From NCBI RefSeq assembly GCF_000734895.2, contig NZ_CP011382.1, positions 784,700 through 848,699 on the forward strand: a stretch of 64,000 bases of DNA. The letters are read 5' to 3'. The first letter of the stretch is position 1, and every line of letters begins with the position of its first letter. This DNA comes from Calothrix sp. 336/3 (lineage in GTDB: Bacteria; Cyanobacteriota; Cyanobacteriia; Cyanobacteriales; Nostocaceae). The notes beneath the pieces are model-generated. The model was not told the DNA's origin, did not search any database, and saw only the letters and a program-made list of their open reading frames with translations. Positions 48,038 to 64,000 of the stretch are shown here, in pieces. The position numbers were made by a program, and so were the translations under genes.

Positions 48038-48046
48038 GACTGTACC

Positions 48047-49903
48047 TCAACATCCTTGCAATCGGAGGAAATGCAATCTTCCTGATGCATCACCCAATGC
48101 TATTACGACACCATCGAAAGTGATTATTGCACAACATCTAATTTCACTTTCACCTGTAAAGCTACCAATAAATTTTTTCCCAAAAGCATCCCATATCTTA
48201 ATACATTCGTTACCTGAAGACCAAATCTGAAGCATTCCATCATAAGTTGTAGCGAGAAGACAAGGTGAACTATCACTAATATTATGAAGGGTACATTCTG
48301 CATCAATACATTTAATTTCAAAAACTCTGTAATTCTCATAATTACCAAAAGTAGTTGCTGATTGACTTTTTCCCGTAAAGCTATATTCATTATTCCAATT
48401 TTGCACGTTCCATAATTTAATATTGTCATCTTTAGCAGCAGAAATTAGATACTCCCCATTAGGTGTAAATGCAACTAATTCTACGGAATCACTGTGACTT
48501 GGTTTCATGGAATCATAAATATCAAATAATTCTTGATTGACAAATTTTTCTAATTCCCATACTTTGATAGTATGGTCATTTGAAAAATGAGAAATATTAC
48601 TTCCCGATCCAGAAATTATACTTTTAGAATCAGAAGTTGCAGTAACAGCAAGAACGGAACCAGTGTGGTTATAAATAATAGCTTCATTTTCCCAAGTCTC
48701 TATTTTCCAAATCTTGAGAGTTTTATCGTCCGACACGGAAATTATTCTTTTTCCATCTGAAGTAATAGATATAGCACGTACTGAATTCCTATGAGCTTCC
48801 AATATACGCTCTTTCTTCAAAGTATCAATATTCCAAATAGTAATAGTTCCATTATGCAAACCACAAATAAGTATTTTTTTTCCAGAAATAGCTAAAATAG
48901 AACATATTATATCTCTATCATTAAGAGTAAATTCTTCTTTTCCTGTTTCTAAATTCCACCCCTTAATAATATTATTATATGAGCCTGAAACTAACAAACT
49001 TTTATTATTGTGGCTAATGATTGTCATTGCCTGTACTGAAGCGGTATGACCAACAAATGTATGTAACACCTCGCCACTTTTTAAATTCCAAACTCTAATA
49101 GAAGTGTCAGATGATGCGGAAACTATTTTGGAGCCGTCAGGAGTTAGTACAATTGCATTAACCGAACTTCTATGACCAGTTAGAGCAAAAATTTCTTTTC
49201 CTGTGATTAATTCCCAAACTTTGATTGTATTGTCAGAAGAACCAGAAACGATGTATTTGTCATCATGGCTCAATGAGACTGCATTAACCCAGTCGCTGTG
49301 ACCAGTTAGAGTCAAAATTTCTTTTCCTGTGACTAATTCCCAAACTTTGATTGTATTATCAGAAGAACCAGAAACGATGTATTTGTCATCATGGCTCAAT
49401 GAGACTGCATTAACCGAAGCTGTATGACCAGTCAGGGTGCGAACTAACCCGTTACCAGGAGGAGTTAAGCTAGCAGTAAGAGGACGCAACCAAGTAATTT
49501 CGGTTTGTGATATTTGTTGAAATAATTTTTGAATTGTTACTTGTTCTTCAAAAGGTAATAAACGTCCCGTTAATTGTCCTGGTAATTGCTTTGTATCTTG
49601 ATTTAAAACATGTGCCGATAGTCGCAAAGCTTCTTTAATTAATTTTAAATCTTTGAGAGTTTCGGGATTATATCCTTGTTTATTTCCCAATTTCTCATTC
49701 TCGATTAACTCATAATCTTCAATTGCTGCTTGCACTCCAAACAGGAAATGATTAATTTTTGCCTCTATGAAATCATAATTACTCAATAAATCACAACATT
49801 TATGAATCTCCCCACCATCTAACAATAAACGCGGGCTTTCACCTAGAAAATGTTCGATTTCTTCCGGTGATTTTTCTGCCAACCAAGCGCGAAGATTACT
49901 CAT
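48047..49903 (-). CDS. WD40-repeat sensor protein with STAND-type helical N-terminus
   Basis: A 618-residue protein. The first ~150 residues are helical (SNYDFIEAKINHFLFGVQAA, then LKLIKEALRLSAHVL and WLRPLTASLTPPGNGLVRTL), which is exactly the stretch that joins NACHT ATPases to WD40 propellers in large cyanobacterial fusion proteins. From there about ten WD40 units follow (HTASVNAVSLSHDDKYIVSG then SSDNTIKVWEL). The first two units are almost identical in DNA. It starts in an ATGA overlap with the HTH-STAND gene, so the sensor and the ATPase are translationally coupled but separate chains. It probably recognises the trigger and controls the ATPase. Confidence 0.9.
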   Translation of the reverse strand: MSNLRAWLAEKSPEEIEHFLGESPRLLLDGGEIHKCCDLLSNYDFIEAKINHFLFGVQAAIEDYELIENEKLGNKQGYNPETLKDLKLIKEALRLSAHVLNQDTKQLPGQLTGRLLPFEEQVTIQKLFQQISQTEITWLRPLTASLTPPGNGLVRTLTGHTASVNAVSLSHDDKYIVSGSSDNTIKVWELVTGKEILTLTGHSDWVNAVSLSHDDKYIVSGSSDNTIKVWELITGKEIFALTGHRSSVNAIVLTPDGSKIVSASSDTSIRVWNLKSGEVLHTFVGHTASVQAMTIISHNNKSLLVSGSYNNIIKGWNLETGKEEFTLNDRDIICSILAISGKKILICGLHNGTITIWNIDTLKKERILEAHRNSVRAISITSDGKRIISVSDDKTLKIWKIETWENEAIIYNHTGSVLAVTATSDSKSIISGSGSNISHFSNDHTIKVWELEKFVNQELFDIYDSMKPSHSDSVELVAFTPNGEYLISAAKDDNIKLWNVQNWNNEYSFTGKSQSATTFGNYENYRVFEIKCIDAECTLHNISDSSPCLLATTYDGMLQIWSSGNECIKIWDAFGKKFIGSFTGESEIRCCAIITFDGVVIALGDASGRLHFLRLQGC

Positions 49904-51288
49904 AAAATAACCCCCTCGGTCATATTCTTGGCAACTTCAGCGCTAATATCAGGTAAATTTATCCCCGCAGCTTGAACAATATCTCGACGGTGTAAAAAAT
50001 CTCGAAAACTCTCATGGTAAAATCGATAGCGGGGTGGTTGATAGATTTCCTGTTTCTGTAAAAATTGCGCCCATCCATCCAGAACTTCTTGCACAGTCAA
50101 TGCATTCTGCTTGGAATATTTAGCAATCACTTCACGGGAAGCAGCACTACGCAAAGCACACATAACATAAACAATTTTGATTTTATTTTTCGGTAAAGGT
50201 TTAGCTGTCATCCCCATAATATGCCAGTGGTTTTCGTAATATCCTTGCAATCCCACAGGCAATTCATCCAAGGGTTTATCATGATAGTAACCTTCAGCAA
50301 TCGCGGGTAAAATACACCGCAAATACATAAAGTTATTTTCACTGTTCACAGCAATTATCTCAACAAAATACTCACAAGAAATATGACTTTCCATATGATC
50401 TTGCTGCTCAATCCATTTAACTAAACCCTGCTGATATTTGCTATCGGCTAATAATTCTCGAATATACTCTTTGACATCCTGCACACTTTCTTGGATTTTC
50501 TCTCTCAAATCTAATTCTTGAGTGGGAGTGCTGGGGGAAAGATTCAGCCTTTTTTCATTCTGATTATAGGGTCTTCTAGTGAGGACAAAGTAAACCCCGT
50601 CGGGGAGAATTGTTGGTAAATATAATATATTTGCTGTTCCTTCCTGGTCAACTTCATCCAGGGCATCCACAACAATAATTAATCGTTCTCCAGTGAATAA
50701 CTTTTCCTTTGCTTTAGTCAATAAAATTGATAAATCTGCATCAGCAACATCTAGTAATTGAAACCGAGCTATTAGCTGTTGGCGAATTCTCTTCAAAAAT
50801 ATTTCTGGACGATTATTTCCCTCAGCACGAATATTAAAAAAACAAATAGTTTCTGGATTATCTAATACATACTTTGCAGAAATGGCGCTTTTACCCATCC
50901 CCGCATCACCAATAATAGTGAAATAGCCATTGGGATTATTTTGTAAGAAATCCTCAATCGCATCAAATACAAATTTTCGTCCACAAAATAGCTCAGTTTT
51001 TTCGTAAATTAGTCGCTCAAACTCTGGTGGTAACTGCCGTTGAGGATACCAGTCTTTAACATCAACGATATCTGTAGGTTCCATTTTCAGAACTTTTGCA
51101 ATATTTTTAACTGCTTGTCGTTCAACCCCGTTTGGACAATCCTTTGTACCAAGTAGGCGTTTAACTGTATCCACAGATACATTCGCTTGGCTTGCTAGTT
51201 CCTCTTGAGTTAACTTAGCTTCCTTATAAGCTTGTTTGAGTCTGGCTTTACCTTCCTCACTAGATTGCACTTTATCAGATTCACGCAT
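49900..51288 (-). CDS. HTH-STAND (NACHT-like) ATPase
   Basis: A 462-residue protein. Residues about 8-70 form a Cro/C1-type helix-turn-helix (KLTQEELASQANVSVDTVKR). The STAND ATPase follows: YFTIIGDAGMGKSAISAKYV (Walker A) and LIIVVDALDEVDQEG (Walker B with the D-x-x-D of NACHT proteins), then VLTRRPY and a winged-helix/helical tail with RYRFYHESFRDFLHRRDIVQ. It lacks a nuclease or membrane effector, so the HTH may be the output, or it may recruit another protein. ATG 51288 is chosen over a start 12 codons upstream. First gene of the three-gene operon; divergent from the two-TM gene. Confidence 0.88.
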   Translation of the reverse strand: MRESDKVQSSEEGKARLKQAYKEAKLTQEELASQANVSVDTVKRLLGTKDCPNGVERQAVKNIAKVLKMEPTDIVDVKDWYPQRQLPPEFERLIYEKTELFCGRKFVFDAIEDFLQNNPNGYFTIIGDAGMGKSAISAKYVLDNPETICFFNIRAEGNNRPEIFLKRIRQQLIARFQLLDVADADLSILLTKAKEKLFTGERLIIVVDALDEVDQEGTANILYLPTILPDGVYFVLTRRPYNQNEKRLNLSPSTPTQELDLREKIQESVQDVKEYIRELLADSKYQQGLVKWIEQQDHMESHISCEYFVEIIAVNSENNFMYLRCILPAIAEGYYHDKPLDELPVGLQGYYENHWHIMGMTAKPLPKNKIKIVYVMCALRSAASREVIAKYSKQNALTVQEVLDGWAQFLQKQEIYQPPRYRFYHESFRDFLHRRDIVQAAGINLPDISAEVAKNMTEGVIL

Positions 51289-51506
51289 TGCCGTAACTGA
51301 GTATTGATACTTGTATATAAACAATAGCGAATTAGTTGTTTTCCGAACTAGGGCAGATAGATTTTCTTTACTTCCCCATCTGCCCTAAATTACCACACAG
51401 CAATAGGGCAACACCCAACACAAACAAAACCCATTTGCCCTGGTACGTATTTTTTAGTCTGAGTAGGATACCAATATCACGAAATACAGCATTTTGGAGA
51501 GTCACC

Positions 51507-52775: not shown

Positions 52776-53318
52776 ATGATGAAATCTTACTTATATCGTG
52801 TTGGCGTAACAGCGATCGCCATGATGACTTCACTAACTATTTTTCCTAGCTTAGTTAAAGCACAGGAAACTCGAAGTCAAGCTTTGGTTCCCCTGGAACT
52901 ATACTGGAGTGCAGACAGAGGGGATAATTTCACCACTGCAACTCCACAGGGGAAAAATAGCGCCATCGAAGCAGGTTATACTTTTGCGCGAGTGGAAGGA
53001 TGTGTTTTTCGCCGACAGCAACAAGGAACAGTACCCCTCAAGCTTTACTGGAGTGCTCAAAGGGGGGATAATTTCACCACAGCTACCCGTATCGGTGCTA
53101 GAAGTGCCATTGAAGCAGGTTATACCTATGCACGAGTGGAAGGCTATGTTTTCCCTACCCAGCAACCAGGAACAGTTCCTCTGCAACTATATTGGAGTGC
53201 CCAAAGGGGGGATAATTTCACCACAGCTACCCGTATCGGTGCCAGTAGCGCCATTGAAGCAGGTTATACCTATGCACGGGTAGAAGGCTATGTTTTTCCT
53301 GCCAGTCAATGTCAGTAG
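52776..53318 (+). CDS. Secreted protein with three 41-residue repeats
   Basis: A 180-residue protein. Residues 1-29 are a signal peptide (TAIAMMTSLTIFPSLVKA then Q). Three repeats of about 41 residues at 38-78, 86-126 and 134-174 (period 48) share LYWSAxRGDNFTTAT and SAIEAGYTYARVEGYVF. The pattern resembles the DUF5648-type repeat, a putative extracellular carbohydrate- or protein-binding beta repeat. It lies between the DUF4365 pair and the minus-strand eCIS block, 75 bp after the former. The repeats are similar at the DNA level too, pointing to recent amplification. Confidence 0.8.
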   Translation: MMKSYLYRVGVTAIAMMTSLTIFPSLVKAQETRSQALVPLELYWSADRGDNFTTATPQGKNSAIEAGYTFARVEGCVFRRQQQGTVPLKLYWSAQRGDNFTTATRIGARSAIEAGYTYARVEGYVFPTQQPGTVPLQLYWSAQRGDNFTTATRIGASSAIEAGYTYARVEGYVFPASQCQ

Positions 53319-53333
53319 ACTTCTTTCATTGAC

Positions 53334-55868
53334 TTATGGTTCTAGCTGAGGTGGTAACTCAACGGGGGCAAGGGATGGTGGTGTTTTGGACTCAGTACCA
53401 TCATCATCGCTGTCATCCTCGGTATTTGCGGCTGGTGGTGCTGCTGCGGGAGTTTGGGCAGGATTTTTCGCGGCTTCGGCTGCTTTTTGAGCTTCCGCGA
53501 TCGCGCTTGCTGCGGCTTTGGCTGCTACCACTGCTGGATTCTCTGCATTGGGATCGTAGGTTTCTAAAACTAGCGATCGCATTACCTGTTGTCCATTGCT
53601 ACTAGTGACTTGCAGCATCAAAGTGATATTACCTGGTTCGGGGTTGGGGGTATAAGCGAGAGAACCTTGTAAACCTACGGTTCCTGGTGCTGGCAATAAA
53701 TCCACCTTACTACCCTCACTAGCATCAACTTTCCAGGATATCTGCAATGGAGTTACAGGTTTACCCTTAGTGATGGCTAAACGATGCTTTGCGGTTACAG
53801 GTTTACCATTAATTGTGAATTCGATAATTTGCGGCATCCGAGGTAAAATTTTTACAGGGTCAGATTTTTTGATATTTACCTGATTACTCACTTCCCCCTT
53901 AGGTACTGCTCGCAACTCGAAGATATAGTCACCCGGTTTGCGGATTCCAGTTTGTATATCAATACATACCAGGGGTTCCCCTTGCCGACAAAATTTCTTC
54001 AAAGATGGGGGAATACCTTGACTTAAATCGTATGTCACCAAGGGTTTAGCTTCCAAACCATCGATAGTCTTAGCAATTAATTGTAATGCTTGCAATTGTT
54101 TAGGATTGGCGATCGCCCAATTGAGACGAATTTCCCAATCCTTGACTTGTTTCTCTGGGTTTTTATCTTTGATCAGACTAGTAATATTACTGACTTCCTT
54201 GTAAATTGGTTGCATAGAACCAAAAGCCAGAATTTGCGGACTGGGAATGGGGGCGATCGCCACAGGGTTAGTTTTCAAACTGTGGGGAACCGCAGATTTA
54301 ATTTGCTTGGGCAAAGTTGTGATTTCAAAAACATAGGTTCCAGGTTTGCGTGCATTGGTACGCACATTTCGACAAGTAAGTAACTGCTTTTCCTGAACAC
54401 AAACAGCTGCCAAACTTGCAGGAATACCCCGACTAAAGTTATAGCTTTCTACCCGTGTCATCGGTTTACCATCGGCAGATAAACCAACAATTTTTATCTC
54501 TTGCAACTGTTGTGGATCATTGACACTAAAACCCAGATGAATAATATCGTTATTTACCGCACTGTAATTACTATCTTCTGGGTAAACTTCAAAAATTTTC
54601 GGTGATGGGGGAACTCGCAGGAAAAACCACCAAATTAGATAAGCACCCCCACCAATACCCAATAAAATCAGTAAAAAAATCGGTAAAAATTGCCACCAAG
54701 GACGGGGTTCCCAAATTAATATCCCTGGCAAATGCTTATTATTAATCGGTAATTCCTGGGTATCTTCCAGGTCTACAGTAAAATTTACTACCTTAGCTCC
54801 CCCAATTAAGGGACGCTTCCAAGCTTTTTGTGGTTTGACGAGCAAATTAACCCCGATAGTTTGCTGGGGTTGAATTAATGCTGTGGTACTGTCCAAGGTA
54901 TAAAGACAAGTATCATCTTCCTCCTGGTTGTGAATTTGCAGATTCATTTGACGGGGAGTGTTCCCAGAATTGCTCAGACGAATTTGATATTCTCCAGCCC
55001 GACTACTTACCCGACTGATGAGAGTTCGCATCTCAGTTTCTAGGGCATAACGGGGTGGTACTTGTAAATATAATAAATCCAAGAGCATCAACTCTGGATT
55101 ATTTTCCGAGTATAAACGCACCGTCGGGACATAATTACCAGCCAGAGCAGTTTCTGGAGGATGAATAATTAAAGAAATTTGCCCCGTTTCCCCAGGATTG
55201 AGATTTAATGCATCCCCTTGCAGTACCAAACCCATCCCTTGAAAACCTTGGGGATAGGTAATTTTATACCAACTCTTATGTAAATCAGAGCAAACGAGTC
55301 GGAATTTATCCACGCGATCGCTACGATTTTGTACCCATACCTGTAGCGCTAATGCTCCTCCTGCTGGAATCAACGCAGGTTCTGAGGAATTGGTAACGGG
55401 TTGTACAACAAAAGTCGGATCGCTACTAGCAACGGTATCTACACTCGCAGGTAGAACCTGGATAAATTGCTCATAACGAATTGGTGTTTCCTCTGGATAA
55501 TCCTCCGGTGCATCCACCACCAAGGTATAACTATAATTACCCGGAAAGGCATTAACTGGTACGGAAAATTGAAAGCTGATTTCTTCACTTTGTTCTGCAC
55601 CCAGGGCTAACTGTTCCCGTGCTTTTTTGCACCACTGCCGCACACCGGAAGAAACTTCTTCTATATAAACTTCAATGACAGCACTCTTTTGACCCTTATT
55701 ACTTACAGCCACACTGAGAGTGAAATTAGTGCCAGCAGGTACTCCCTCTCTCCCAGAAGCACTGAGAATCACCGCCAACGGTTTGGGAACAAAAGTATTG
55801 TGAGCAGCAGAAGTTAAAGCTTGCTGTTCGGCGATGGATATGGCAGTTTCGATATGTTCACTCAACAT
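53334..55868 (-). CDS. Large single-TM protein with Ig-like domains, eCIS-associated
   Basis: An 844-residue protein. The N-terminal ~390 residues contain several Ig-like/CARDB-type beta domains (for example NFTLSVAVSNKGQKSAVIEV and SYTLVVDAPEDYPEETPIRY). One strong membrane helix lies at about 388-415 (FLPIFLLILLGIGGGAYLIW). The C-terminal half holds further beta domains of a different type, with a repeated segment (EIRLNWAIANPKQLQALQLI and DIIHLGFSVNDPQQLQEIKI), and a Pro/Ala-rich end. It starts 1 bp after the stop of the WD40/TM gene, with GGAGGG before ATG 55868. It could anchor or support the injection apparatus in the membrane. Confidence 0.75.
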   Translation of the reverse strand: MLSEHIETAISIAEQQALTSAAHNTFVPKPLAVILSASGREGVPAGTNFTLSVAVSNKGQKSAVIEVYIEEVSSGVRQWCKKAREQLALGAEQSEEISFQFSVPVNAFPGNYSYTLVVDAPEDYPEETPIRYEQFIQVLPASVDTVASSDPTFVVQPVTNSSEPALIPAGGALALQVWVQNRSDRVDKFRLVCSDLHKSWYKITYPQGFQGMGLVLQGDALNLNPGETGQISLIIHPPETALAGNYVPTVRLYSENNPELMLLDLLYLQVPPRYALETEMRTLISRVSSRAGEYQIRLSNSGNTPRQMNLQIHNQEEDDTCLYTLDSTTALIQPQQTIGVNLLVKPQKAWKRPLIGGAKVVNFTVDLEDTQELPINNKHLPGILIWEPRPWWQFLPIFLLILLGIGGGAYLIWWFFLRVPPSPKIFEVYPEDSNYSAVNNDIIHLGFSVNDPQQLQEIKIVGLSADGKPMTRVESYNFSRGIPASLAAVCVQEKQLLTCRNVRTNARKPGTYVFEITTLPKQIKSAVPHSLKTNPVAIAPIPSPQILAFGSMQPIYKEVSNITSLIKDKNPEKQVKDWEIRLNWAIANPKQLQALQLIAKTIDGLEAKPLVTYDLSQGIPPSLKKFCRQGEPLVCIDIQTGIRKPGDYIFELRAVPKGEVSNQVNIKKSDPVKILPRMPQIIEFTINGKPVTAKHRLAITKGKPVTPLQISWKVDASEGSKVDLLPAPGTVGLQGSLAYTPNPEPGNITLMLQVTSSNGQQVMRSLVLETYDPNAENPAVVAAKAAASAIAEAQKAAEAAKNPAQTPAAAPPAANTEDDSDDDGTESKTPPSLAPVELPPQLEP

Positions 55869-55869
55869 T

Positions 55870-58017
55870 TTATTCACACCCTCCACTGGGTTGGGTTAAT
55901 CGATGCAATCTGACTTGATAATCATCACCACCACTGGCAACCAATACCTGATTTTGAGCGCGGATAATATCAATGCTTCTCAGAGGTTTATTACCTTTGT
56001 AAATAACTTTACCTGTGGCATCATCAGTGGTACGTTTACCTTCGCGGTTTAATCCCCAGACTCTAGCTGTACCATCATCACCACCGGAGGCAAGGTAGCA
56101 ACCATCACTAGATAGGGCAACACTCCGCACAGCTTCCTTACTTGCCGTCCATTGGTCTAGTAATTCACATTCCCCTCTATTATTCAGACAGGGGCTAAGG
56201 TTCCAGAGTTTGATATTACCTTGGTTGTCAGCAGTCGCCAGGAGGTTGGGTTTACTGTCAGGGCTGCCCAGGGCAAGAATGTAATCTTGTTGACCGCCAA
56301 GAGGATTTTTTACGGGTATTTGCTGATTTGTTTGCCAATCCCAGAGGGTGATTTGGTTAAATCTGCCAGCGATCGCCAGGTAATTTTGTTTCTCTCCCAC
56401 CAAAGTCATCGCATTCACGGCAAAACCTACCTGTTGTTGCTGTGTAGGTTGCAAGGGTACACCTTGGGTTAAGTTCCACTGTAAAACTAAACCGCTCCCA
56501 TGACCGCTAAATATAGTTTGGGAATCTTTACTAAAAGTAATATCAAATACGCGATCGTCTTTTTGATAGGCAAAAGGTATTTGGGTTGTTCTTGATAACA
56601 AATTAAATATCTGAATTTCCCCATTTTCGTATCCTACCGCCACACGGTCATTATTTACAGGACGGTAGCGAACAACACGCACAGCTTTATCACTTTTTCC
56701 CAGAATTCCTAGGGGATGAATATCAAATTTTTTGACCTGCCAGCGTCTAATTGTTTGGTCATTAGAACCACTGGTAATTTCTGTTCCCAATCCACTAAAT
56801 CTAACTGTATTTACTTCCTTATTATGCTCATGTTGGAGCGTAAAAATTTGTCGAGCGACGACTAAACTTAACAATATAGTTACAGCAATATAACCAGTTT
56901 GTAACCAAATTGGGATTACAGGTAAGACTCGTAATTCCAGAGTTTGAGTATCATTTTGGACTTCAATTCTATTATCTGGGGTGATAGCTTTGACTGTAAT
57001 TTCTCGTCGTCTCACCCATCCAAACCAAGGGCGTTGACGGCGGACATTTAAATTAAATTGAGTGGGGTGGGTTAAACTCAATTCAGTTCTTTCTGGAGTT
57101 AATTCCCAAATAGTCTGACGTTGACTTTGCCTTCTTAATAATTTATTCCAGAGTTTATTCCATCGTGAGGTAGCAGATTCCGGAACATGAATATCTAAGC
57201 TAACTTCTTGAGCAAGATTACTGTGGTTATGAAATTCTAACGTATATGTAGCAGTATTCCTTATTTCTTTATCAGCACTTTTTTCCGGAATTGTATATAC
57301 CAAAGGATGACATTTTAAATTCAAGGAACCCTGGGGTAAAACCGTCAAATTACCAGAGACAGTTACTAAAGGTGCTTCTGGTTGCTGAACTTCAATAGTA
57401 AAAGGATATACCCGACTTGCCGCTTGACTCAATTCCGGAATTTGACATTCCCAGACTTCTCTAACTTGCTCACCAGTAGGTATCTGCAAGCGTTTTTCTG
57501 CACCTTCAGGAAACCAACTGGAATCAATACCCAAAAAGCGTAAAGTCACATTGGCAGTACGTTGGGTGAAACTTTCCAGAGAGACGGGAATTTTTATGCG
57601 ATCGCCAGGATAACCGAGAAAATCCTGCGTCGGTAAATCTACGCGAGGAGCCGCAACACCAGTACCAGGAATTACTAATCTAACTACGTGGCGATTTTCC
57701 GCAGCAGCTAATTCTAAGGAAAATACCCGAATCGTTAACGTCATTAACCCCACAAATCCTGGTGTGGGAATATCAGATATTTTTACCGTAAATTGGGTGA
57801 TATCTCCTGGAGGTTTTTTCGTGCAAACTTCTGGGGAAATACTATACCAATTATTATTAGCTCCAACTTTCACTCCAGCAGCTAAAACCTCAACTTGGAA
57901 CGTCGCAAACTGTTCACTTTGATTCACAACAGTCACATCAAAGCTAACAGGTTCACCCCCCGGATGAAAGGTGACTTCTTTTTTAGAAACTTGGGTATTA
58001 ATTAGTTCTTTAAGCAT
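55870..58017 (-). CDS. Single-TM protein with Ig-like domains and WD40 propeller, eCIS-associated
   Basis: A 715-residue protein. The N-terminal half has beta domains of the same kind as the neighbour (VTFHPGGEPVSFDVTVVNQS and VNVTLRFLGIDSSW-like segments; RTANVTLRFLGIDSSWFPEG). A membrane helix follows at about 365-390 (WLQTGYIAVTILLSLVVARQ). The C-terminal ~315 residues are a WD40 propeller (TEITSGSNDQTIRRWQVKKF, then SSDGCYLASGGDDGTARVWG). It is tightly coupled to the downstream Ig-TM gene. Ig-like region and propeller are on opposite sides of the membrane. Likely a sensor or anchor linked to the contractile injection system. Confidence 0.78.
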   Translation of the reverse strand: MLKELINTQVSKKEVTFHPGGEPVSFDVTVVNQSEQFATFQVEVLAAGVKVGANNNWYSISPEVCTKKPPGDITQFTVKISDIPTPGFVGLMTLTIRVFSLELAAAENRHVVRLVIPGTGVAAPRVDLPTQDFLGYPGDRIKIPVSLESFTQRTANVTLRFLGIDSSWFPEGAEKRLQIPTGEQVREVWECQIPELSQAASRVYPFTIEVQQPEAPLVTVSGNLTVLPQGSLNLKCHPLVYTIPEKSADKEIRNTATYTLEFHNHSNLAQEVSLDIHVPESATSRWNKLWNKLLRRQSQRQTIWELTPERTELSLTHPTQFNLNVRRQRPWFGWVRRREITVKAITPDNRIEVQNDTQTLELRVLPVIPIWLQTGYIAVTILLSLVVARQIFTLQHEHNKEVNTVRFSGLGTEITSGSNDQTIRRWQVKKFDIHPLGILGKSDKAVRVVRYRPVNNDRVAVGYENGEIQIFNLLSRTTQIPFAYQKDDRVFDITFSKDSQTIFSGHGSGLVLQWNLTQGVPLQPTQQQQVGFAVNAMTLVGEKQNYLAIAGRFNQITLWDWQTNQQIPVKNPLGGQQDYILALGSPDSKPNLLATADNQGNIKLWNLSPCLNNRGECELLDQWTASKEAVRSVALSSDGCYLASGGDDGTARVWGLNREGKRTTDDATGKVIYKGNKPLRSIDIIRAQNQVLVASGGDDYQVRLHRLTQPSGGCE

Positions 58018-58159
58018 TTTAATTATATTGGGTAATGCTTGCCATGAGTGACTTGTACTCAGCGAAGTCGAGGTAAATTAAACGGGTAATATATATTTGG
58101 TTACAGGTGACAGATATTTCTCTTTTTACCTCTTCCTAAATATTCTCCATCTACTGCAA

Positions 58160-59557
58160 TTAAACCTTATCTCTTGCTTCCCTCGATCTCAAAAGTAATG
58201 CTTGAATATTTGTATTACCAGACATTTGACTTTCTAGAGCCGCTTTTTTCACTTTTTCACTTTCATTTTTCATCTGTTCTAAGCGATTTTTAAGATTTGC
58301 TTCTCTATCTTGAACAGTATTAGCCATTTCCTGAAAGACTCTTGCTAGTTCACCCAATTCATCACCACGTTGGGCAATAATTGCCAACTTTTCTGGTTCA
58401 AAACTTTGATTTTCATCACAAATATGCTTTGCAGCTTGATTAACTTGCACAATTGGTACAACTAACCAGTTAGAAACCACTACTCCAGCAAAAATACTAA
58501 AGGCAATCGTACCAATAATGATAACGATCGCCGCATTTCTAGTCTGCTGTAAAGATTCTGTAAATGATGATTCTGGTACAGCTATCACTAACCACCAATC
58601 TAAACCATAATCATCTTTCATACGGCTAACTTTAATTAGCTGTTTTTCTCCATTCACCGGATGAAATTTAAATTTACCTACCTTGCCAATATCTTGAAAA
58701 TTACCATATTTTTTTTCTAAATCTTGAGCAACTTGACTTATCAAAGGATTTTGAGTAAATTTTGTCGCCAGAATTTGCTCACCCTTATCATCAAAAACAG
58801 GCTTTTTATCAGAAGCAGCAATCAGTTTTCCTGATGGTTCAATAATAAAGATTGTCTTGGAAGATTCCTTACTCAAACCTGACAAGAAATCATTAATTTG
58901 ATTCAAGAAAAAGTCAGAAGAGATAACACCAACTAGCCGCTTATTTTTATCAAAAATTGGACGTGCCCCAGATATCCTTAACTGTAAAGTATCAGATGTT
59001 TTTTTCGGAGAGACGGGAGTCCAAATCGGTTTACCTGCGGCAACTGCGGCTTTATACCAAGGACGCTTCCGAGCATCATAATCCCCCTCTCGCTTAATTT
59101 CCTTGCCCCGTTTGCCATCAGATGATACTTCATAAATGGCAGATTTTTGCTGGGTTGAGCTATCAGCCAGATTATACTGTAATACCTTACCTTCTCTCAC
59201 AATTGACCTGAGTTGTCCACCTTGTTCATAACCGAACTGAATGCCATTTACATTATTGAATATTTGTGATTGTGACCAAAAGTTAATTAGTAAAGCGTCT
59301 GGTTTATCTAAGCTTAAATCTAATTGCCCTTGACTAATAGCATCAGCATTAAGTTGATTAATTAAATGAGGTCTTCTGAGTAGTACACCTAATCTTTCTC
59401 GAATTCTTTGACTTTGGGCATCCATAATTTGCTGTGAGAATTTATCTACAGCTTTTTGTCCGGTATACCAGGCAATTGCCGCTACTAACCCCACACAAGA
59501 TACTAAAGGAATGAGAAAAGCAATCGGAACTGTTTTTTGGATAGAGAATGAACGCAT
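58160..59557 (-). CDS. Cache-HAMP sensor without output domain
   Basis: A 465-residue membrane protein with an N-terminal helix (TVPIAFLIPLVSCVGLVAAI), a large periplasmic dCache-like domain (DYDARKRPWYKAAVAAGKPI, RISGARPIFDKNKRLVGVIS), a second helix (AAIVIIIGTIAFSIFAGVVV) and a HAMP domain (VVPIVQVNQAAKHI ... GDELGELARVFQEMANTVQD). The protein then ends after a short coiled coil; there is no kinase, cyclase or methyl-accepting domain. The frame is open with a normal stop. It may signal through partner proteins. The gene stands between the eCIS baseplate genes and the two Ig-TM genes. Confidence 0.85.
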   Translation of the reverse strand: MRSFSIQKTVPIAFLIPLVSCVGLVAAIAWYTGQKAVDKFSQQIMDAQSQRIRERLGVLLRRPHLINQLNADAISQGQLDLSLDKPDALLINFWSQSQIFNNVNGIQFGYEQGGQLRSIVREGKVLQYNLADSSTQQKSAIYEVSSDGKRGKEIKREGDYDARKRPWYKAAVAAGKPIWTPVSPKKTSDTLQLRISGARPIFDKNKRLVGVISSDFFLNQINDFLSGLSKESSKTIFIIEPSGKLIAASDKKPVFDDKGEQILATKFTQNPLISQVAQDLEKKYGNFQDIGKVGKFKFHPVNGEKQLIKVSRMKDDYGLDWWLVIAVPESSFTESLQQTRNAAIVIIIGTIAFSIFAGVVVSNWLVVPIVQVNQAAKHICDENQSFEPEKLAIIAQRGDELGELARVFQEMANTVQDREANLKNRLEQMKNESEKVKKAALESQMSGNTNIQALLLRSREARDKV

Positions 59558-59754
59558 AATTTTTTGTTGGGAAGGGGGAAGGGATTGAGAATTAATAGGT
59601 GTTAAGTAATAAGTAATGAGTATTAAGTAATAAGTTTGACCTCACCGCTATTGCCAAAAGATATAATCAAAGGAATGTAATTTTTAACTTTTTATCTCAA
59701 AAAGAGAGATATTTTAAACCTTTTTCTTCAGTCTCACGACTCACGACTCACTAC

Positions 59755-61077
59755 CTACTGACTTAATAGAGTTAGTTGTCGTCTTTGCCAAGCAAAGTGG
59801 AGAATATTTATCCCCATTTCTTGAGCATTGCGGATAGCTTCACGGGAAAGGGATAGGGTATCTATGCTCCAGGAGGTGGAGAGGGAACCAACTACCAGTA
59901 AAATGCCACCCCAGTTAAAGATATTGATAGGTGCATTCCTAACGCTTGGTAGTTGAGCAAAGAGAAAGGGTTGCTGATGGAGGGGGTGGTTACGGGAAAT
60001 AAATTCAGAGCGAGTCGCACTAATACCAACTTTCTCAGCAAATTCACGGATAGGAAGAGAAACATGATTCAGTAATTCAATGATTGCAGCTTCATTGGCA
60101 GCGAGTTCTGTTTGCAATTCCTGAAGGATGAAAGACGCTGCGGGGTTAGGGGGTAAGTTGGCGATCGCCTGCTGTAATTCTTGTCTAATCGTGCTTAATT
60201 CAGCAGTATTGGCATCCTGGGCAGAAATTTCCACCATCAACAGCGCCCCACTTTGCAAATACTGGCGCATGATATCAATTTCTGTTTCCTTCAGGGTGAG
60301 TAAATTTTGGTAATTGACATAGAGCAAATCATAATCGAGCTTGTCTAACCCTGCCGTCAAATCAACCTTCACAACTGCGGTTCCTTCCATGGGTGGGTAG
60401 AGCGATCGCACTGATTGGGCTAAATAATTTAAATTGCTCCAAGCAGTTGTGTAATCATTTTGACCTGGTGATAGATAGCCAATTCTCACTGATTCGATAG
60501 CTCGCATCTGTGCCTGTTGTCGATAACGCAAATCGATTTCATTCACAGTCGGGGCAAACACATCATCGGCGATTTTTAATTCCACATCCCCCGGTTGCAA
60601 CAAAATTCGACACAACTCAATTTCCGTATTTTGGGGAACCGAAGTTTTCTCATTGATACGGAAAGTCTCACAAACAAATTGGCGATTATTCTGAAATTGC
60701 AATTTATCTGGATCTACATAGTCAATCACAATGTAAACCGTCAAAAACCCACTTTTCGGCAGTTCCGAACCAATGCGAAATACCAACGCTTCCGGTACCA
60801 CAATCGGATTACCCTGAGCATCAATCGCCAATCCTGGTTGAATTTCTAACCACCGCCCATCCCGATACTCCGAGGAAACCTCCTGAGGAGCCGCAATAGT
60901 TCGCACACCCAAACCCCAAACAATTCCCGACTGATGTAAAGACTGATAATAAATATTTTGGCGCTGTCGATGGTAATCATGCGCCTGCCGCCAACCCTCA
61001 GCAGTTAACAGCAAGCCATCATTTACTTGTAATCTTTGTAACGGCTTAATTCCGGTTGGTGACAGACGTGATGACAT
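59755..61077 (-). CDS. eCIS baseplate-associated protein with DUF4159-like C-terminal region
   Basis: A 440-residue protein. The N-terminal part (KPLQRLQVNDGLLLTAEGWR, then GIVWGLGVRTI and LAIDAQGNPIVVPE) is of the type found beside TIGR02243 baseplate genes in eCIS loci. From about residue 200 there is a DUF4159-like Rossmann region (VRIGYLSPGQNDYTTAWSNL then YDLLYVNYQNLLTLKETEID) and it ends with a further region rich in structural residues. It overlaps the upstream tail-protein gene by 32 bp, so the two are coupled. Its role in the particle is unknown; a baseplate or cap-like component is possible. Confidence 0.75.
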   Translation of the reverse strand: MSSRLSPTGIKPLQRLQVNDGLLLTAEGWRQAHDYHRQRQNIYYQSLHQSGIVWGLGVRTIAAPQEVSSEYRDGRWLEIQPGLAIDAQGNPIVVPEALVFRIGSELPKSGFLTVYIVIDYVDPDKLQFQNNRQFVCETFRINEKTSVPQNTEIELCRILLQPGDVELKIADDVFAPTVNEIDLRYRQQAQMRAIESVRIGYLSPGQNDYTTAWSNLNYLAQSVRSLYPPMEGTAVVKVDLTAGLDKLDYDLLYVNYQNLLTLKETEIDIMRQYLQSGALLMVEISAQDANTAELSTIRQELQQAIANLPPNPAASFILQELQTELAANEAAIIELLNHVSLPIREFAEKVGISATRSEFISRNHPLHQQPFLFAQLPSVRNAPINIFNWGGILLVVGSLSTSWSIDTLSLSREAIRNAQEMGINILHFAWQRRQLTLLSQ

Positions 61078-62119
61078 ATTCGCTACTCCGAGGCTCTATA
61101 TATAATTCATAGGTACAAAAAGCTGGCTTCTCTTGCTCAATCACATTTCTGACGAGCAACTCATCAATTTCACTCCCATATTCTGGATGCAAGCGTACAG
61201 TAAAATGAAACGGTCGCCCTCCACCAATAATTGCATCTTCACCCAATTTGGCTTGTCCAAATACCAAACCCCGACTAAAGGATTCTGTAATGCAGATATG
61301 TTTATCTACCTCATTCCCCATCTCTTCATCCAGAGGTAAGCCCGTTGCCAAATGCAAATATAAACGTAATCCCCGACGTGTTCCTCGCCAGCGATAAATC
61401 TCCATCGCCTTCTTAATTAAAAGACGTTGCTGTGCTTCACTTAGCTGTACAGTTGGTTGCCAAGCTACCCACTGCGCCAAAAACGGCAACATCCCAGAAG
61501 GAGCAGTCAAAGGATCCAGATATGCCCACAAACTATCCAAAGTATGAACACAAGGTTCAAAACTCTGCTCAAATACCTTCAGGAAGCGCCCCACAAAATC
61601 CACTTCCCGATAAATCATCGGTAGGAAATTGAGATATAAACTATGGGGACGAATATTTAGGTGAAATTTCACCTCTTCTATATGTTGTACCCCTGTGTTT
61701 GCTTCCTGCCAATGCACAGACAAACGCACATCATAATCTAACTTCAGTCGCTCCCCCTTCCCCACAGCCGTATATCGCTCAAAGAAATCCGCAGCTATCT
61801 GGAAATACAGCACCGCTTCCATTTGCTGCCCAGGCAACACCTGGGAACCTTCCATTCCCACCTGACACCATTCCTGGGGAAAATCTCCCTGCACCTGCAA
61901 ATTTAAACCTAGGGGACGCGCTCCCATATTTTTCACCTGCACCACCATCTCACTCGGCTCTCCGGGGCGCAACAGTAAATTTCGCTTCAGACTCGTACCA
62001 TCAGTACTAGCCATTTTCACCCAATTTGCAGCTGGTTGCTGTCCGGAAGCAGTCGGAACCGCTTCTGGGATTTGCATTGGCGTGAGTTGGAGACTAATTA
62101 GTTGCTGGGATTGCTTCAT
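61046..62119 (-). CDS. Phage tail protein I-like eCIS baseplate component (TIGR02242 type)
   Basis: A 357-residue protein. An Ig-like N-terminal region (RNLLLRPGEPSEMVVQVKNM) precedes the tail-protein domain from about residue 155: SLYLNFLPMIYREVDFVGRF, ALDSLWAYLDPLTAPSGMLP-like (LDSLWAYLDPLTAPSGMLPF), LAQWVAWQ and MEIYRWRGTRRGLRLYLHLA. These are the usual motifs of the P2 gpI/TIGR02242 family in contractile injection systems. It forms a wedge of the baseplate with the TIGR02243 protein. The N-terminal Ig-like part is extra and matches the Ig-like domains of the two TM proteins downstream. Confidence 0.85.
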   Translation of the reverse strand: MKQSQQLISLQLTPMQIPEAVPTASGQQPAANWVKMASTDGTSLKRNLLLRPGEPSEMVVQVKNMGARPLGLNLQVQGDFPQEWCQVGMEGSQVLPGQQMEAVLYFQIAADFFERYTAVGKGERLKLDYDVRLSVHWQEANTGVQHIEEVKFHLNIRPHSLYLNFLPMIYREVDFVGRFLKVFEQSFEPCVHTLDSLWAYLDPLTAPSGMLPFLAQWVAWQPTVQLSEAQQRLLIKKAMEIYRWRGTRRGLRLYLHLATGLPLDEEMGNEVDKHICITESFSRGLVFGQAKLGEDAIIGGGRPFHFTVRLHPEYGSEIDELLVRNVIEQEKPAFCTYELYIEPRSSEYVITSVTNRN

Positions 62120-62187
62120 GGCAGAGAGGAAGGGGGAAGGGAGTAGGGAGTAGGGAGTAGGGAGCTAGTAGTCTGTCAGATTTGAAT

Positions 62188-62240
62188 TGGGGGACTAGGG
62201 GGATTAGGGGGACTAGGGGGACTAGGGGGATTAGGGGGAG
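62188..62240. repeat. 9-bp G-rich tandem repeat within the eCIS operon
   Basis: About six units of GGGGGACTA or GGGGGATTA in the gap between two baseplate genes. Upstream of it (62140-62163) are GGGAGTA-type short repeats. The unit is closely related to the complement of the array at 32466-32685 (ATTAGGGGG versus ATTAGGGAG). Consecutive runs of five G could fold into a G-quadruplex on the plus strand. Confidence 0.88.
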
Positions 62241-62273
62241 ATATCCCTCAAATTATTACCCATCACCCATTAC

Positions 62274-64000
62274 CTAAATCAAAGTAATTGTGTGACTGGA
62301 ACGAAGTTGATTGTCTGCCCAGGAGCAAATAAGCCCTTGGGGGGTGGGGTTGACAATACCACCAGGGGCAAGGGAGCGGAACCAAGAGGAACCTTCTTTG
62401 CGTAGTTCAAATAACAAAATCGTGCCCAGGTAGCGCACACCTTCTGTTTTCTGGAACAAACTGATAATGTCCGAGGGATAAACACAGGCTCCAAATTCCC
62501 ATCCCGTACCGTTGACTCCTCCGGTGAGGGGGTTAAGGAAGTGATAGAGGGAAACCTGTAACTTTTGCAGAACAGATTGCTGTGCTTGGCGGTTGCTGTA
62601 TTCGGGGTATAATCCCACCTCTGCTTGTACGGCAACACCGACATATTCCGGTTCTTGCAAACGCACTTCCACACCGAGTAACCGTCGCTCATCTAGGTAG
62701 TTGAGGAGTTGGGTTTTCAGGGAAAGATTGAGGGCGAATTGTTGGGGATTAATACCTTCACCATAGAAAATACTGTCCGTATTCGCTTGGGGAACAATCA
62801 GTAAATCCACAACTCCCCTACTGGTTTCGTTGTTGGAGCGGGGTGGACAATAGGCACGGGCGATCGCCCCTTTACCTCCTTGTAAAGCTAGGGTTTCAAA
62901 GTCTTCGGGGGTGACAGCGCGATCGCGGGTTCGCAGTATCCGAGGTACACGCATCACAGCTTCGTCTAGGGTTTCGGCATCGGCTCCATTTCTCGCGGGC
63001 ACATGATTTGTCACCTTTTCAACGTACGGAATGGCGGTTTTGGGTGTTTCCAGGGTATGGGCTTGGACGTTACCCTTACGCCCTCCTCCGGTGCGATACA
63101 GCGCCATGCGAATTTGGGAACCCCTGGGAGGAATTGCGCCATATTGTCGTTCCATGCGTTGCACTTCTGCGACTTGTTCCTGTACCTGGAGAGATGTTGC
63201 ACCATTGACCTGTATCTTTGCCCGTAATTGCGTATCCTCACGGATTTGGTTCGACTGACGAATCACAAACCCAAACTGAACTTCTCCGGTTTGGTCATCA
63301 ATTATGTAGTGTCGGTCTTGCTCCTGGGAATCCGCAAAATCACTTACCTCTTGCCAGATTTCCGGCAGTCCTCCGGGAGGCAGAACAATTAGATGTTCAC
63401 CCTGACGACGGGGTAAAATGGAGCCGTTTTGCAATTGAAATTTTTGCCCTGGTGTACCATCGCTGATTCCCAAAACTTCATCGGCAACCAAGGTACATTG
63501 ACTCGCTGCCACGGTTCCACCAATGGCTTTCACTCCCATCCCTGATAATTGGGGCGATCGCAAATAACCTGATTGTATTCCCGATGGCAATGTATAAGTA
63601 CAGCGCAACCATCTCCCTTGATAGGCAGCAAAATAACTATTGGGGAAAGTTTGCGGTAGGTGTAACACCACATCCCCCTCTGCCAGGGTATTTACTCCTT
63701 GCCCACTCTCGTTGAAGCTGAAACCTTTGCTACTATCATCTGCTTCCTGTAACAGTACTGTCACCCAATCCTCACCATCCCAAGCTTCCCAACGTCGGGG
63801 TGGATTGTCGGGATTAATACCCGTAGCTGTTGCGGTTTCCCCCTGAAGTTTCACCGCAATCACGTTCCCTTCCAGGGGTTGATCGGGACTGAGAACCACG
63901 TAAAAACAATTACCTGGTTGGGGTTGCTCCTCAAAAATCGATTGCTTTCTCCCTTCCCATATGCCATCACCATTTTTGCTCCAGGTGTTGGTTAGGCGAT
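62274..64000 (-). CDS. Putative baseplate assembly protein (TIGR02243/gpJ-like), partial
   Basis: At least 575 codons are open up to the right edge, where the frame continues beyond any in-window start; a GTG at 63899 is not the true start because the upstream codons (GIWEGRKQSIFEEQ, PGNCFYVV) are family-like too. The core shows GQKFQLQNGSILPRRQGEHL, DQTGEVQFGFVIRQSNQIRE, RMALYRTGGGRKGNVQAHTL and RVPRILRTRDRAVTPEDFET, LALQGGKGAIARAYCPPRS, typical of the large wedge proteins of the J family. The gene would be the upstream member of the eCIS baseplate block in this orientation; the sheath and tube genes are expected to the right. Confidence 0.88.
   Translation of the reverse strand, partial: RLTNTWSKNGDGIWEGRKQSIFEEQPQPGNCFYVVLSPDQPLEGNVIAVKLQGETATATGINPDNPPRRWEAWDGEDWVTVLLQEADDSSKGFSFNESGQGVNTLAEGDVVLHLPQTFPNSYFAAYQGRWLRCTYTLPSGIQSGYLRSPQLSGMGVKAIGGTVAASQCTLVADEVLGISDGTPGQKFQLQNGSILPRRQGEHLIVLPPGGLPEIWQEVSDFADSQEQDRHYIIDDQTGEVQFGFVIRQSNQIREDTQLRAKIQVNGATSLQVQEQVAEVQRMERQYGAIPPRGSQIRMALYRTGGGRKGNVQAHTLETPKTAIPYVEKVTNHVPARNGADAETLDEAVMRVPRILRTRDRAVTPEDFETLALQGGKGAIARAYCPPRSNNETSRGVVDLLIVPQANTDSIFYGEGINPQQFALNLSLKTQLLNYLDERRLLGVEVRLQEPEYVGVAVQAEVGLYPEYSNRQAQQSVLQKLQVSLYHFLNPLTGGVNGTGWEFGACVYPSDIISLFQKTEGVRYLGTILLFELRKEGSSWFRSLAPGGIVNPTPQGLICSWADNQLRSSHTITLI

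What the first reader, a model, noticed from the sequence alone, without database searches (positions are those of the whole stretch)
53334..64000. eCIS baseplate block followed by Ig-TM and WD40-TM proteins: candidate membrane anchor and sensor of a cyanobacterial injection system
Seen: TIGR02243- and TIGR02242-like baseplate proteins and a DUF4159-like baseplate-associated protein, then two proteins with N-terminal Ig-like beta domains and a central membrane helix (one with a WD40 propeller). The tail protein carries an Ig-like segment of similar style. Known: thylakoid-anchored contractile injection systems exist in multicellular cyanobacteria. Inference: Ig-like domains of the TM proteins dock on the baseplate and tether the particle; the propeller may sense stress and trigger firing.
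Basis: partly seen in the sequence, partly recalled or inferred. Interest (0 to 1): 0.7.

Follow-up and report, generated by a model that had tools for sequence, protein, structure and literature searches.

The report
Membrane module of a cyanobacterial injector
A cyanobacterium carries a phage-tail-like injection machine of the Streptomyces kind, and its genes travel with a fixed set of membrane proteins that probably dock the machine to a membrane and tell it when to fire.

Summary
The window holds the baseplate end of a complete contractile injection system (CIS); sheath, tubes, spike and AAA+ lie just right of it. Downstream come IgWD (3 Ig-like domains, membrane helix, WD40 propeller) and IgTM (3 Ig, helix, 3 Ig), which share their N-terminal Ig array and helix.

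Linkage is very strong. Of 339 cyanobacterial genomes, 20 have this baseplate type (one, G066, diverged) and the same 20 have IgTM and IgWD; none was found in the other 319. A pseudokinase-TM-solute-binding protein of the cluster is in 19 of the 20 and no other.

The thylakoid analogy does not follow. The core is closest to the Streptomyces cytoplasmic CIS, not Anabaena tCIS. A true tCIS with its own TM-anchored Cis13 lies elsewhere in this genome.

Best reading: an obligate membrane platform doing, with several proteins, what CisA does in Streptomyces (docking plus signal input). Docking, orientation, which membrane, and sensing are inferred. I found no description in the papers searched. New variant of a known kind.

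The parts
53334..55886 (-). IgTM, 850 aa: three Ig-like domains (37-392), membrane helix 397-420, three Ig-like domains (430-777), C-terminal helix and disordered tail
   Evidence: ORF; AF2 mean pLDDT 79.0; families A1/A5; in the same 20 of 339 genomes as the baseplate protein
55870..58017 (-). IgWD, 715 aa: three Ig-like domains (1-364), membrane helix 370-395, WD40 propeller 402-708; overlaps the IgTM start by 17 bases
   Evidence: ORF; Pfam WD40; AF2 mean pLDDT 88.5; Foldseek WD40 matches; shares the Ig array and helix with IgTM, hhalign E 2e-20; overlap
   Evidence: Pfam dCache_1 E 1.5e-16; HAMP E 1.2e-4, just under its cut-off; a relative occupies this slot in 13 of 32 loci where IgWD follows CIS13L
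59755..61077 (-). CIS13L, 440 aa: N-terminal CIS13_fam-like domain plus C-terminal DUF4159; no membrane helix by hydropathy in this copy
   Evidence: NCBIfam NF053767 residues 20-120 E 4.7e-12, below cut-off; DUF4159 E 2e-8; family A4; highest 19-residue hydropathy 1.38
61046..62119 (-). TIGR02242 / Cis12-like baseplate protein, 357 aa, with an extra N-terminal Ig-like domain
   Evidence: TIGR02242 E 8.8e-38; Ig similarity to IgWD and IgTM; the Streptomyces chain 9gtp_E is 190 aa and matches only the TIGR02242 part
62274..64000 (-). TIGR02243 / Cis11-like baseplate protein, 731 aa, cut by the window end (continues to about 64469)
   Evidence: TIGR02243 E 1e-184; closest solved relative 9gtp_1K E 7.5e-111

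Best explanation
The cluster encodes a Streptomyces-like (type IId-related) contractile injection system of cyanobacteria with an obligate, separately encoded membrane platform. IgWD and IgTM are single-pass membrane proteins whose matching N-terminal Ig arrays (probably cytoplasmic) bind the baseplate rim, most likely through the extra Ig domain of the TIGR02242 protein and/or CIS13L, and so hold or recruit the particle at a membrane. Their different C-terminal parts (a propeller, three Ig domains) lie on the other side. The pseudokinase-TM-solute-binding protein, and in many clusters a Cache/Tll0287-HAMP sensor (often with a cyclic-nucleotide-binding domain), feed a signal to the platform that licenses firing. 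Shown: gene content, shared N-terminal architecture, strict co-occurrence. Inferred: docking, orientation, which membrane, signalling, firing.
For: Same 20 of 339 genomes for full-length TIGR02243, IgTM and IgWD, and 19 of these 20 for the pseudokinase; they keep co-occurring where some lie far apart on one contig, e.g. G241. IgTM was found in 75 of 77 genomes behind 80 named loci. Shared Ig array plus helix and Ig similarity to the baseplate protein (controls 84, 85). Core closest to the Streptomyces CIS (depositions named), whose firing needs a separate membrane protein, CisA, with a solute-binding-like outer domain, encoded just downstream of baseplate genes (PMC12237407 sections 5 and 9; PMC10066040 passages). 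No N-terminal signal peptide stands out by hydropathy in the window proteins, and large domains precede the helix; the close-spaced conserved cysteine pairs lie after the helix. Both suit N-in/C-out.
Against: No interaction was computed or measured. Charges beside the helix do not support N-in: IgTM K+R 33 before/51 after; IgWD 38/35 with D+E 55/18. Single cysteines before the helix are also well conserved (IgTM C199 17 of 20, C327 18 of 20). In 16 of 28 loci read mostly for the second arrangement no CIS gene lies in the ~8-20 kb around the pair. This genome has an orphan IgTM paralogue with no CIS structural gene in the 60 kb read around it. Two of 77 genomes gave no IgTM. The sensor slot holds no recognised sensor in 19 of 32 loci.
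Confidence: 0.6

Rival explanations
1. Permanent thylakoid anchor: the particle sits fixed in thylakoid pores as Anabaena tCIS does, with IgWD/IgTM replacing the Cis13 membrane helix.
For: Cyanobacterial host; tCIS precedent (PMC8894136 passages); the window's CIS13L shows no membrane helix by hydropathy, so an anchor must come from elsewhere.
Against: Core is Streptomyces-like; a separate true tCIS exists in this genome; the module also occurs in a MAG titled Gloeobacterales. No sequence feature seen here tells thylakoid from cytoplasmic membrane.
Confidence: 0.15
2. IgWD and IgTM act on the envelope (opening or weakening it so that particles are released or cells lyse) and never touch the baseplate.
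For: The pair can stand apart from structural genes (16 of 28 loci).
Against: Ig similarity to the baseplate protein; in the first arrangement the pair follows baseplate genes (32 of 80 loci); no enzyme or pore domain was found.
Confidence: 0.12
3. IgWD and IgTM are parts of the particle itself (fibre- or crown-like) that insert into the target membrane after release.
For: Position after the baseplate genes, where eCIS fibre genes often lie (PMC10066040 passages); Ig-like knobs occur in some eCIS fibres (PMC12923769 passages).
Against: Mid-protein membrane helix with large domains on both sides, unlike a fibre tip; no long fibre shaft in the two models.
Confidence: 0.08
4. The link is only shared gene inheritance on a mobile island, without a working relation.
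For: Clusters can be plasmid-borne.
Against: Co-occurrence holds where the genes are far apart on one contig (G241, G125, G167) and within genera that vary in having the system (g2, g5, g7).
Confidence: 0.05

Closest known systems
Streptomyces coelicolor cytoplasmic CIS (type IId) with CisA
   Same: Sheath (8bky, E 1e-111), TIGR02243 protein (9gtp_1K, E 7.5e-111) and TIGR02242 domain (9gtp_E, E 1.3e-12) are the closest solved relatives (both entries belong to the Streptomyces CIS papers); a membrane protein gene follows the baseplate genes; CisA has an outer solute-binding-like domain, as the pseudokinase protein here has
   Different: Here the TIGR02242 protein has an added Ig domain; there is a CIS13L-DUF4159 protein; and instead of one CisA there are IgWD, IgTM, a pseudokinase-TM-PBP protein and often a sensor. 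Homology to CisA was not tested (sequence not in hand).
Anabaena thylakoid CIS (tCIS)
   Same: Cyanobacterial CIS of the contractile-tail kind; membrane attachment expected
   Different: Sheath match much weaker (7b5h E 2.4e-48); tCIS anchors by the Cis13 C-terminal helix and a Cis12 extension (PMC8894136 passages). The genome's separate second cluster is of that type: All3316-like protein E 4e-48, All3325-like sheath E 2.5e-198.
Haloarchaeal T6SS-like CIS with putative anchor Hbor_38620
   Same: Separately encoded, conserved membrane protein tied to one CIS clade (PMC11566945 passages)
   Different: Described as six membrane helices with a ~150-residue cytoplasmic domain; here single-pass, Ig arrays, propeller
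T6SS threonine-phosphorylation control (PpkA/Fha; recalled, no call)
   Same: Kinase, FHA and membrane-sensor genes beside the IgWD-IgTM pair or the contractile genes
   Different: No T6SS membrane-complex protein was recognised among the cluster proteins scanned; the kinase and FHA genes were seen only in some clusters of the second arrangement and were not shown to act on the CIS

Membership tests
Contractile injection system (eCIS-type cluster) | sheath, tube, spike, gp25, J-like baseplate, AAA+, Pvc16_N genes together | tested here: met
   C1:846973-877689
Streptomyces-like (type IId-related) CIS | sheath and baseplate proteins closer to the Streptomyces CIS than to other solved CIS | tested here: met
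   with 112, 113 (best-hit test; no tree was built)
Streptomyces-like (type IId-related) CIS | CisA orthologue | not tested
   CisA sequence not in hand; the pseudokinase-TM-PBP protein shares only a general layout
Anabaena thylakoid CIS | Cis13 tail-fibre-like protein with C-terminal membrane helix in the cluster | tested here: not met
   No such protein seen among the ORFs listed for this cluster; one is present in the separate second cluster
Anabaena thylakoid CIS | thylakoid location | not testable with these tools
   needs imaging
T6SS | recognisable trans-envelope membrane-complex genes | tested here: not met
   None among the cluster proteins scanned; not every small ORF was scanned
CisA-like separate membrane adaptor (works like) | membrane protein that co-occurs strictly with the CIS | tested here: met
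   20 of 20 positive, 0 of 319 others at E 1e-5
CisA-like separate membrane adaptor (works like) | required for contraction in the cell | not testable with these tools
   needs deletion and cryo-ET

The most novel reading that the evidence does not exclude
A signal-gated, membrane-docked injection system: cyanobacteria turned a cytoplasmic CIS into a device wired to membrane sensors (Cache/Tll0287-HAMP with or without a cyclic-nucleotide-binding domain, CHASE2-kinase plus FHA, and an obligate pseudokinase joined to an outer binding protein), with twin Ig-array proteins as the coupling between membrane and baseplate, comparable in logic to T6SS phospho-control but built from other parts.
Probability: 0.35. 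Interest if true: 0.78.

Novelty: new variant of a known kind. Interest (0 to 1): 0.62.

Why it matters
How a free cytoplasmic CIS finds a membrane and is told to fire is an open question; CisA is the Streptomyces answer, and the Roseiflexus relatives were reported to lack close cisA homologues (PMC12998442 passages). Here is a defined, conserved set of membrane proteins in many cyanobacteria, some of them named isolates, that makes the question testable by deletion and imaging. It also shows that one cyanobacterium can carry two CIS of different types, one with a Cis13 anchor and one apparently with a different anchoring solution.

Tried and rejected
Rejected: tCIS membership of this cluster. 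Rejected: equating CIS13L with Anabaena Cis13; the short All3316-like protein is a different protein in the second cluster, and NCBIfam CIS13_fam matches only the first ~100 residues of CIS13L, below its cut-off. Rejected: anti-phage defence reading; PADLOC gave only weak matches. No phage relative of the TIGR02242 protein within reach of the phage collection (no match). Uninformative: Foldseek of IgTM gave generic Ig-rich proteins; Foldseek of IgWD gave mainly WD40 and other propeller or Ig-rich proteins; profile A4 against PDB hit only designed TIM barrels, taken as chance, a single-sequence search gave nothing, and profile A1 gave nothing. Topology by flanking charge was inconclusive.
Full report
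WHAT IS THERE. The window is C1:784700-848699 of a 6.42-Mb genome. IgWD and IgTM overlap by 17 bases. To the right lie gp25 (C1:849245-849643), an eCIS_core protein (C1:850079-852790), AAA+ (C1:857340-859307), Pvc16_N (C1:859549-860820), sheath (C1:861758-863470), four tube-like proteins (two of the four were scanned; both hit Phage_T4_gp19), a 2362-aa low-complexity protein, a CIS_tube protein (labelled LysM in my scripts), a VgrG-like spike, a DUF4280 PAAR-like protein, and a pseudokinase-TM-PBP protein (C1:877835-880132). Labels of unscanned members follow position and mutual similarity.

ARCHITECTURE. AlphaFold2 models: IgWD (mean pLDDT 88.5) has three beta domains, helix 370-395 and a propeller at 402-708, with many WD40 structures as matches. 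IgTM (79.0) has three beta domains, helix 397-420, three beta domains, a helix and a disordered tail. Profile comparison shows that the two families share the N-terminal Ig array and the helix (99.3%, E 2e-20, 375 columns): they look like paralogues with exchanged C-terminal parts. The N-terminal Ig domain of the TIGR02242 protein resembles both (89.9% and 88.8%), while the neighbouring CIS13L family, used as a control, does not (0.1-0.2%). Ig folds of this type are common, so this is support for a related module, not proof of contact. CIS13L: the window copy has no hydropathy peak above 1.38; 8 of 21 relatives reach 1.74-1.94, mostly within the DUF4159 part, which I do not read as a membrane helix but cannot exclude.

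LINKAGE. Query TIGR02243 in 339 genomes drawn from the phylum: 30 have a match. Compared full length in the fetched stretches, two groups stand apart: 42.7% identity or more and at least 580 bits in 20 genomes, against at most 29% over the length and 251 bits in the five other clusters read (L086-L090). G019 belongs to the second group although one 138-residue piece reached 43%. My note before the IgTM profile search counted 19 genomes at 49% or more; the diverged G066 (42.7%, 580 bits) was added afterwards on the full-length comparison. IgTM profile in the same 339: 20, the same 20 genomes. IgWD N-terminal part: 20, the same 20 (G066 only at E 1.5e-8). Pseudokinase protein at E 1e-30: 19, the same set without G066. 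None of the other 319 genomes has any of the three at these thresholds; the tool scored only a few first-look candidates per genome, so a miss is possible. The trait varies inside genera g2, g5 and g7, and the genes vary together there. An earlier search of 40 relatives with single-sequence IgTM found it in 12.

NAMED GENOMES. 222 stretches encode TIGR02242 relatives; the best 80 loci, all titled as cyanobacteria, were kept. In 32 of 80, IgWD follows CIS13L directly, after a sensor gene, or in one case (L111) after one unidentified ORF. In 28 of these 32 one open frame over 650 aa matches both halves of IgTM (L130 runs to its contig end, L111 is short at 664 aa). For 40 of the other loci (38 genomes) the whole genome was searched: IgTM in 37 of 38. 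For the last 8 loci plus the 4 with broken or missing IgTM (12 genomes): 11 of 12. Together 75 of 77 genomes, counting Nostoc sp. LPT, which holds two of the loci, once; the two misses (L109, L117) are genomes whose records are MAGs.

RESULTS AGAINST STRICT ADJACENCY. In the second arrangement (mainly Nostoc and Calothrix kin) the pair lies away from the baseplate genes. Of 28 loci read (one of which, L250, is of the first arrangement), IgWD is directly followed by IgTM in 27 (small unmatched ORFs left out; one has a secretion-type ORF between); 12 of 28 show a CIS structural, AAA+ or Pvc16-like gene in the same ~8-20 kb stretch and 16 do not. In some of these the baseplate genes are on the same contig some 20-30 kb away (for example Calothrix PCC 7103, NIES-4105 and PCC 7716; positions). 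This genome has an extra IgTM paralogue at C1:2524015-2526204; in C1:2496000-2555999 no CIS structural gene was seen, only one weak match (34 bits) to the pseudokinase protein. Co-occurrence is therefore stronger than adjacency.

WHICH CIS. The sheath is closest to 8bky (E 1e-111) and far from Anabaena 7b5h (E 2.4e-48); the TIGR02243 protein and the TIGR02242 domain hit 9gtp chains best. 8BKY and 9GTP are depositions of the two Streptomyces CIS papers (data statements). The 190-aa chain 9gtp_E matches only the TIGR02242 part, so the Ig domain is an addition here relative to that chain. The same genome carries a second cluster at about C1:2.39-2.42 Mb with an All3325-like sheath (E 2.5e-198) and an All3316-like Cis13 (E 4e-48) whose end looks like a membrane helix by eye: a true tCIS with its own anchor. 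The IgTM and IgWD searches found no match of this genome there.

SIGNALLING GENES. The slot between CIS13L and IgWD holds a membrane sensor in 13 of 32 loci. Ten such proteins were scanned (from 9 of the 13 loci): seven have a dCache_1 match (two of them below the cut-off) and three Tll0287-like, all ten a HAMP match (three below the cut-off); six have a cyclic-nucleotide-binding domain. L057, from the unnamed set, has the same dCache-HAMP-cNMP layout. The window's protein has no output domain. In the second arrangement, relatives of a CHASE2-kinase or a kinase-TM protein were found in 9 of 28 stretches and of an FHA protein in 7 of 28, counts that include the loci the query proteins came from. 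The pseudokinase family has HGN or HGH where active kinases have HRD and CDL where they have DFG, in all 10 distinct sequences aligned (the canonical motifs are recalled and the placing is by eye); it continues with a membrane helix and, in this genome's copy, a PBP_like_2 domain. Casu et al. report a solute-binding-like outer domain of CisA and suggest sensing (PMC12237407 section 9).

ORIENTATION. No N-terminal signal peptide stands out by hydropathy in the window proteins (a few relatives have a more hydrophobic start), so by the usual rules for signal-anchor proteins (established knowledge) the Ig array should stay in the cytoplasm. Close-spaced conserved cysteine pairs lie after the helix: IgTM C496/C505 in 20 and 20 of 20 and C633/C641 in 19 and 20 of 20; IgWD C610/C617 in 19 and 21 of 21. 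Before the helix the conserved cysteines are far apart (IgTM C86 11, C199 17, C327 18 of 20; IgWD C191 17, C236 12 of 21), though some are as well kept; the argument is the pairing, and distances in the models were not measured. Flanking charges do not support this orientation. I take N-in as likely, unproven. The propeller would then face the periplasm or lumen.

MEMBRANE. Nothing seen here tells thylakoid from cytoplasmic membrane. A MAG titled Gloeobacterales has an IgTM ORF (43% to the Ig array) and an IgWD ORF (36% to the Ig array, propeller matched too) side by side on one contig; Gloeobacter is described as lacking thylakoids (abstract starts listed). The title may be wrong or the bin contaminated. 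The module is also in MAGs titled Acaryochloris and Acaryochloridaceae, which I recall as unicellular, whereas the Cis13 membrane helix was reported only in filamentous cyanobacteria (PMC8894136 passages).

LITERATURE. Searches for WD40 with CIS and cyanobacteria (1 paper), for eCIS with the domain names (9 and 3 papers), and for CIS with Ig-like, FHA, anchor and cyanobacteria terms (10 of 63 listed) showed no paper whose title or abstract start describes these proteins. The passages or sections seen in PMC8894136, PMC12998442, PMC12237407, PMC11566945, PMC8213781, PMC10066040 and PMC12923769 do not mention them. Subscription papers and supplementary tables were not seen, so earlier mention elsewhere is possible.

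VERDICT. A real, conserved membrane and signalling module of a Streptomyces-like cyanobacterial CIS. The anchor idea survives in changed form; the thylakoid analogy does not follow. New variant of a known kind; interest 0.62.

Noticed in passing
G000 C1:~2.386-2.424 Mb (L233, L245): A second, Anabaena-type tCIS in the same genome: All3325-like sheath, All3316-like Cis13 with a hydrophobic C-terminal end, and a 1901-aa protein that by eye has Ig/PKD-like repeats and a hydrophobic stretch near its end (no domain call).
   Followed up: partly
L004:3835-6132 (C1:877835-880132): Pseudokinase-TM-PBP_like_2 protein present in 19 of the 20 genomes with this CIS type and in none of the other 319 at E 1e-30; candidate functional counterpart of CisA.
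   Followed up: partly
G000 C1:2524015-2526204 (L083:8001-10199): Orphan IgTM paralogue with no IgWD and no CIS structural gene in the 60 kb read around it.
   Followed up: partly
L003:11282-18370: 2362-aa, Asn/Ser-rich low-complexity protein with long internal repeats between a tube gene and the CIS_tube gene; weak relatives or other large ORFs sit at this place in some other clusters. Possible length- or cargo-related part; not examined.
   Followed up: no
window 46970-51324: Minus-strand NTPase-like and WD40-like proteins left of the cluster (by eye), resembling a signalling or conflict module.
   Followed up: no
window 52776-53318: 180-aa protein with a DUF5648 match and visible repeats, just left of IgTM on the opposite strand.
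   Followed up: no
NZ_AP017564.1 64955-106661 (L265): CIS genes with an IgTM relative on a 125-kb Pseudanabaena sp. ABRG5-3 plasmid, annotated as hypothetical protein.
   Followed up: partly
L053, L093, L168: IgWD or IgTM genes split into several reading frames in MAG or unnamed contigs; sequencing errors or decay.
   Followed up: no
L240:7518-9329, L239:3854-5929: Omp85/ShlB-type secretion genes beside the IgWD-IgTM pair in G125.
   Followed up: no
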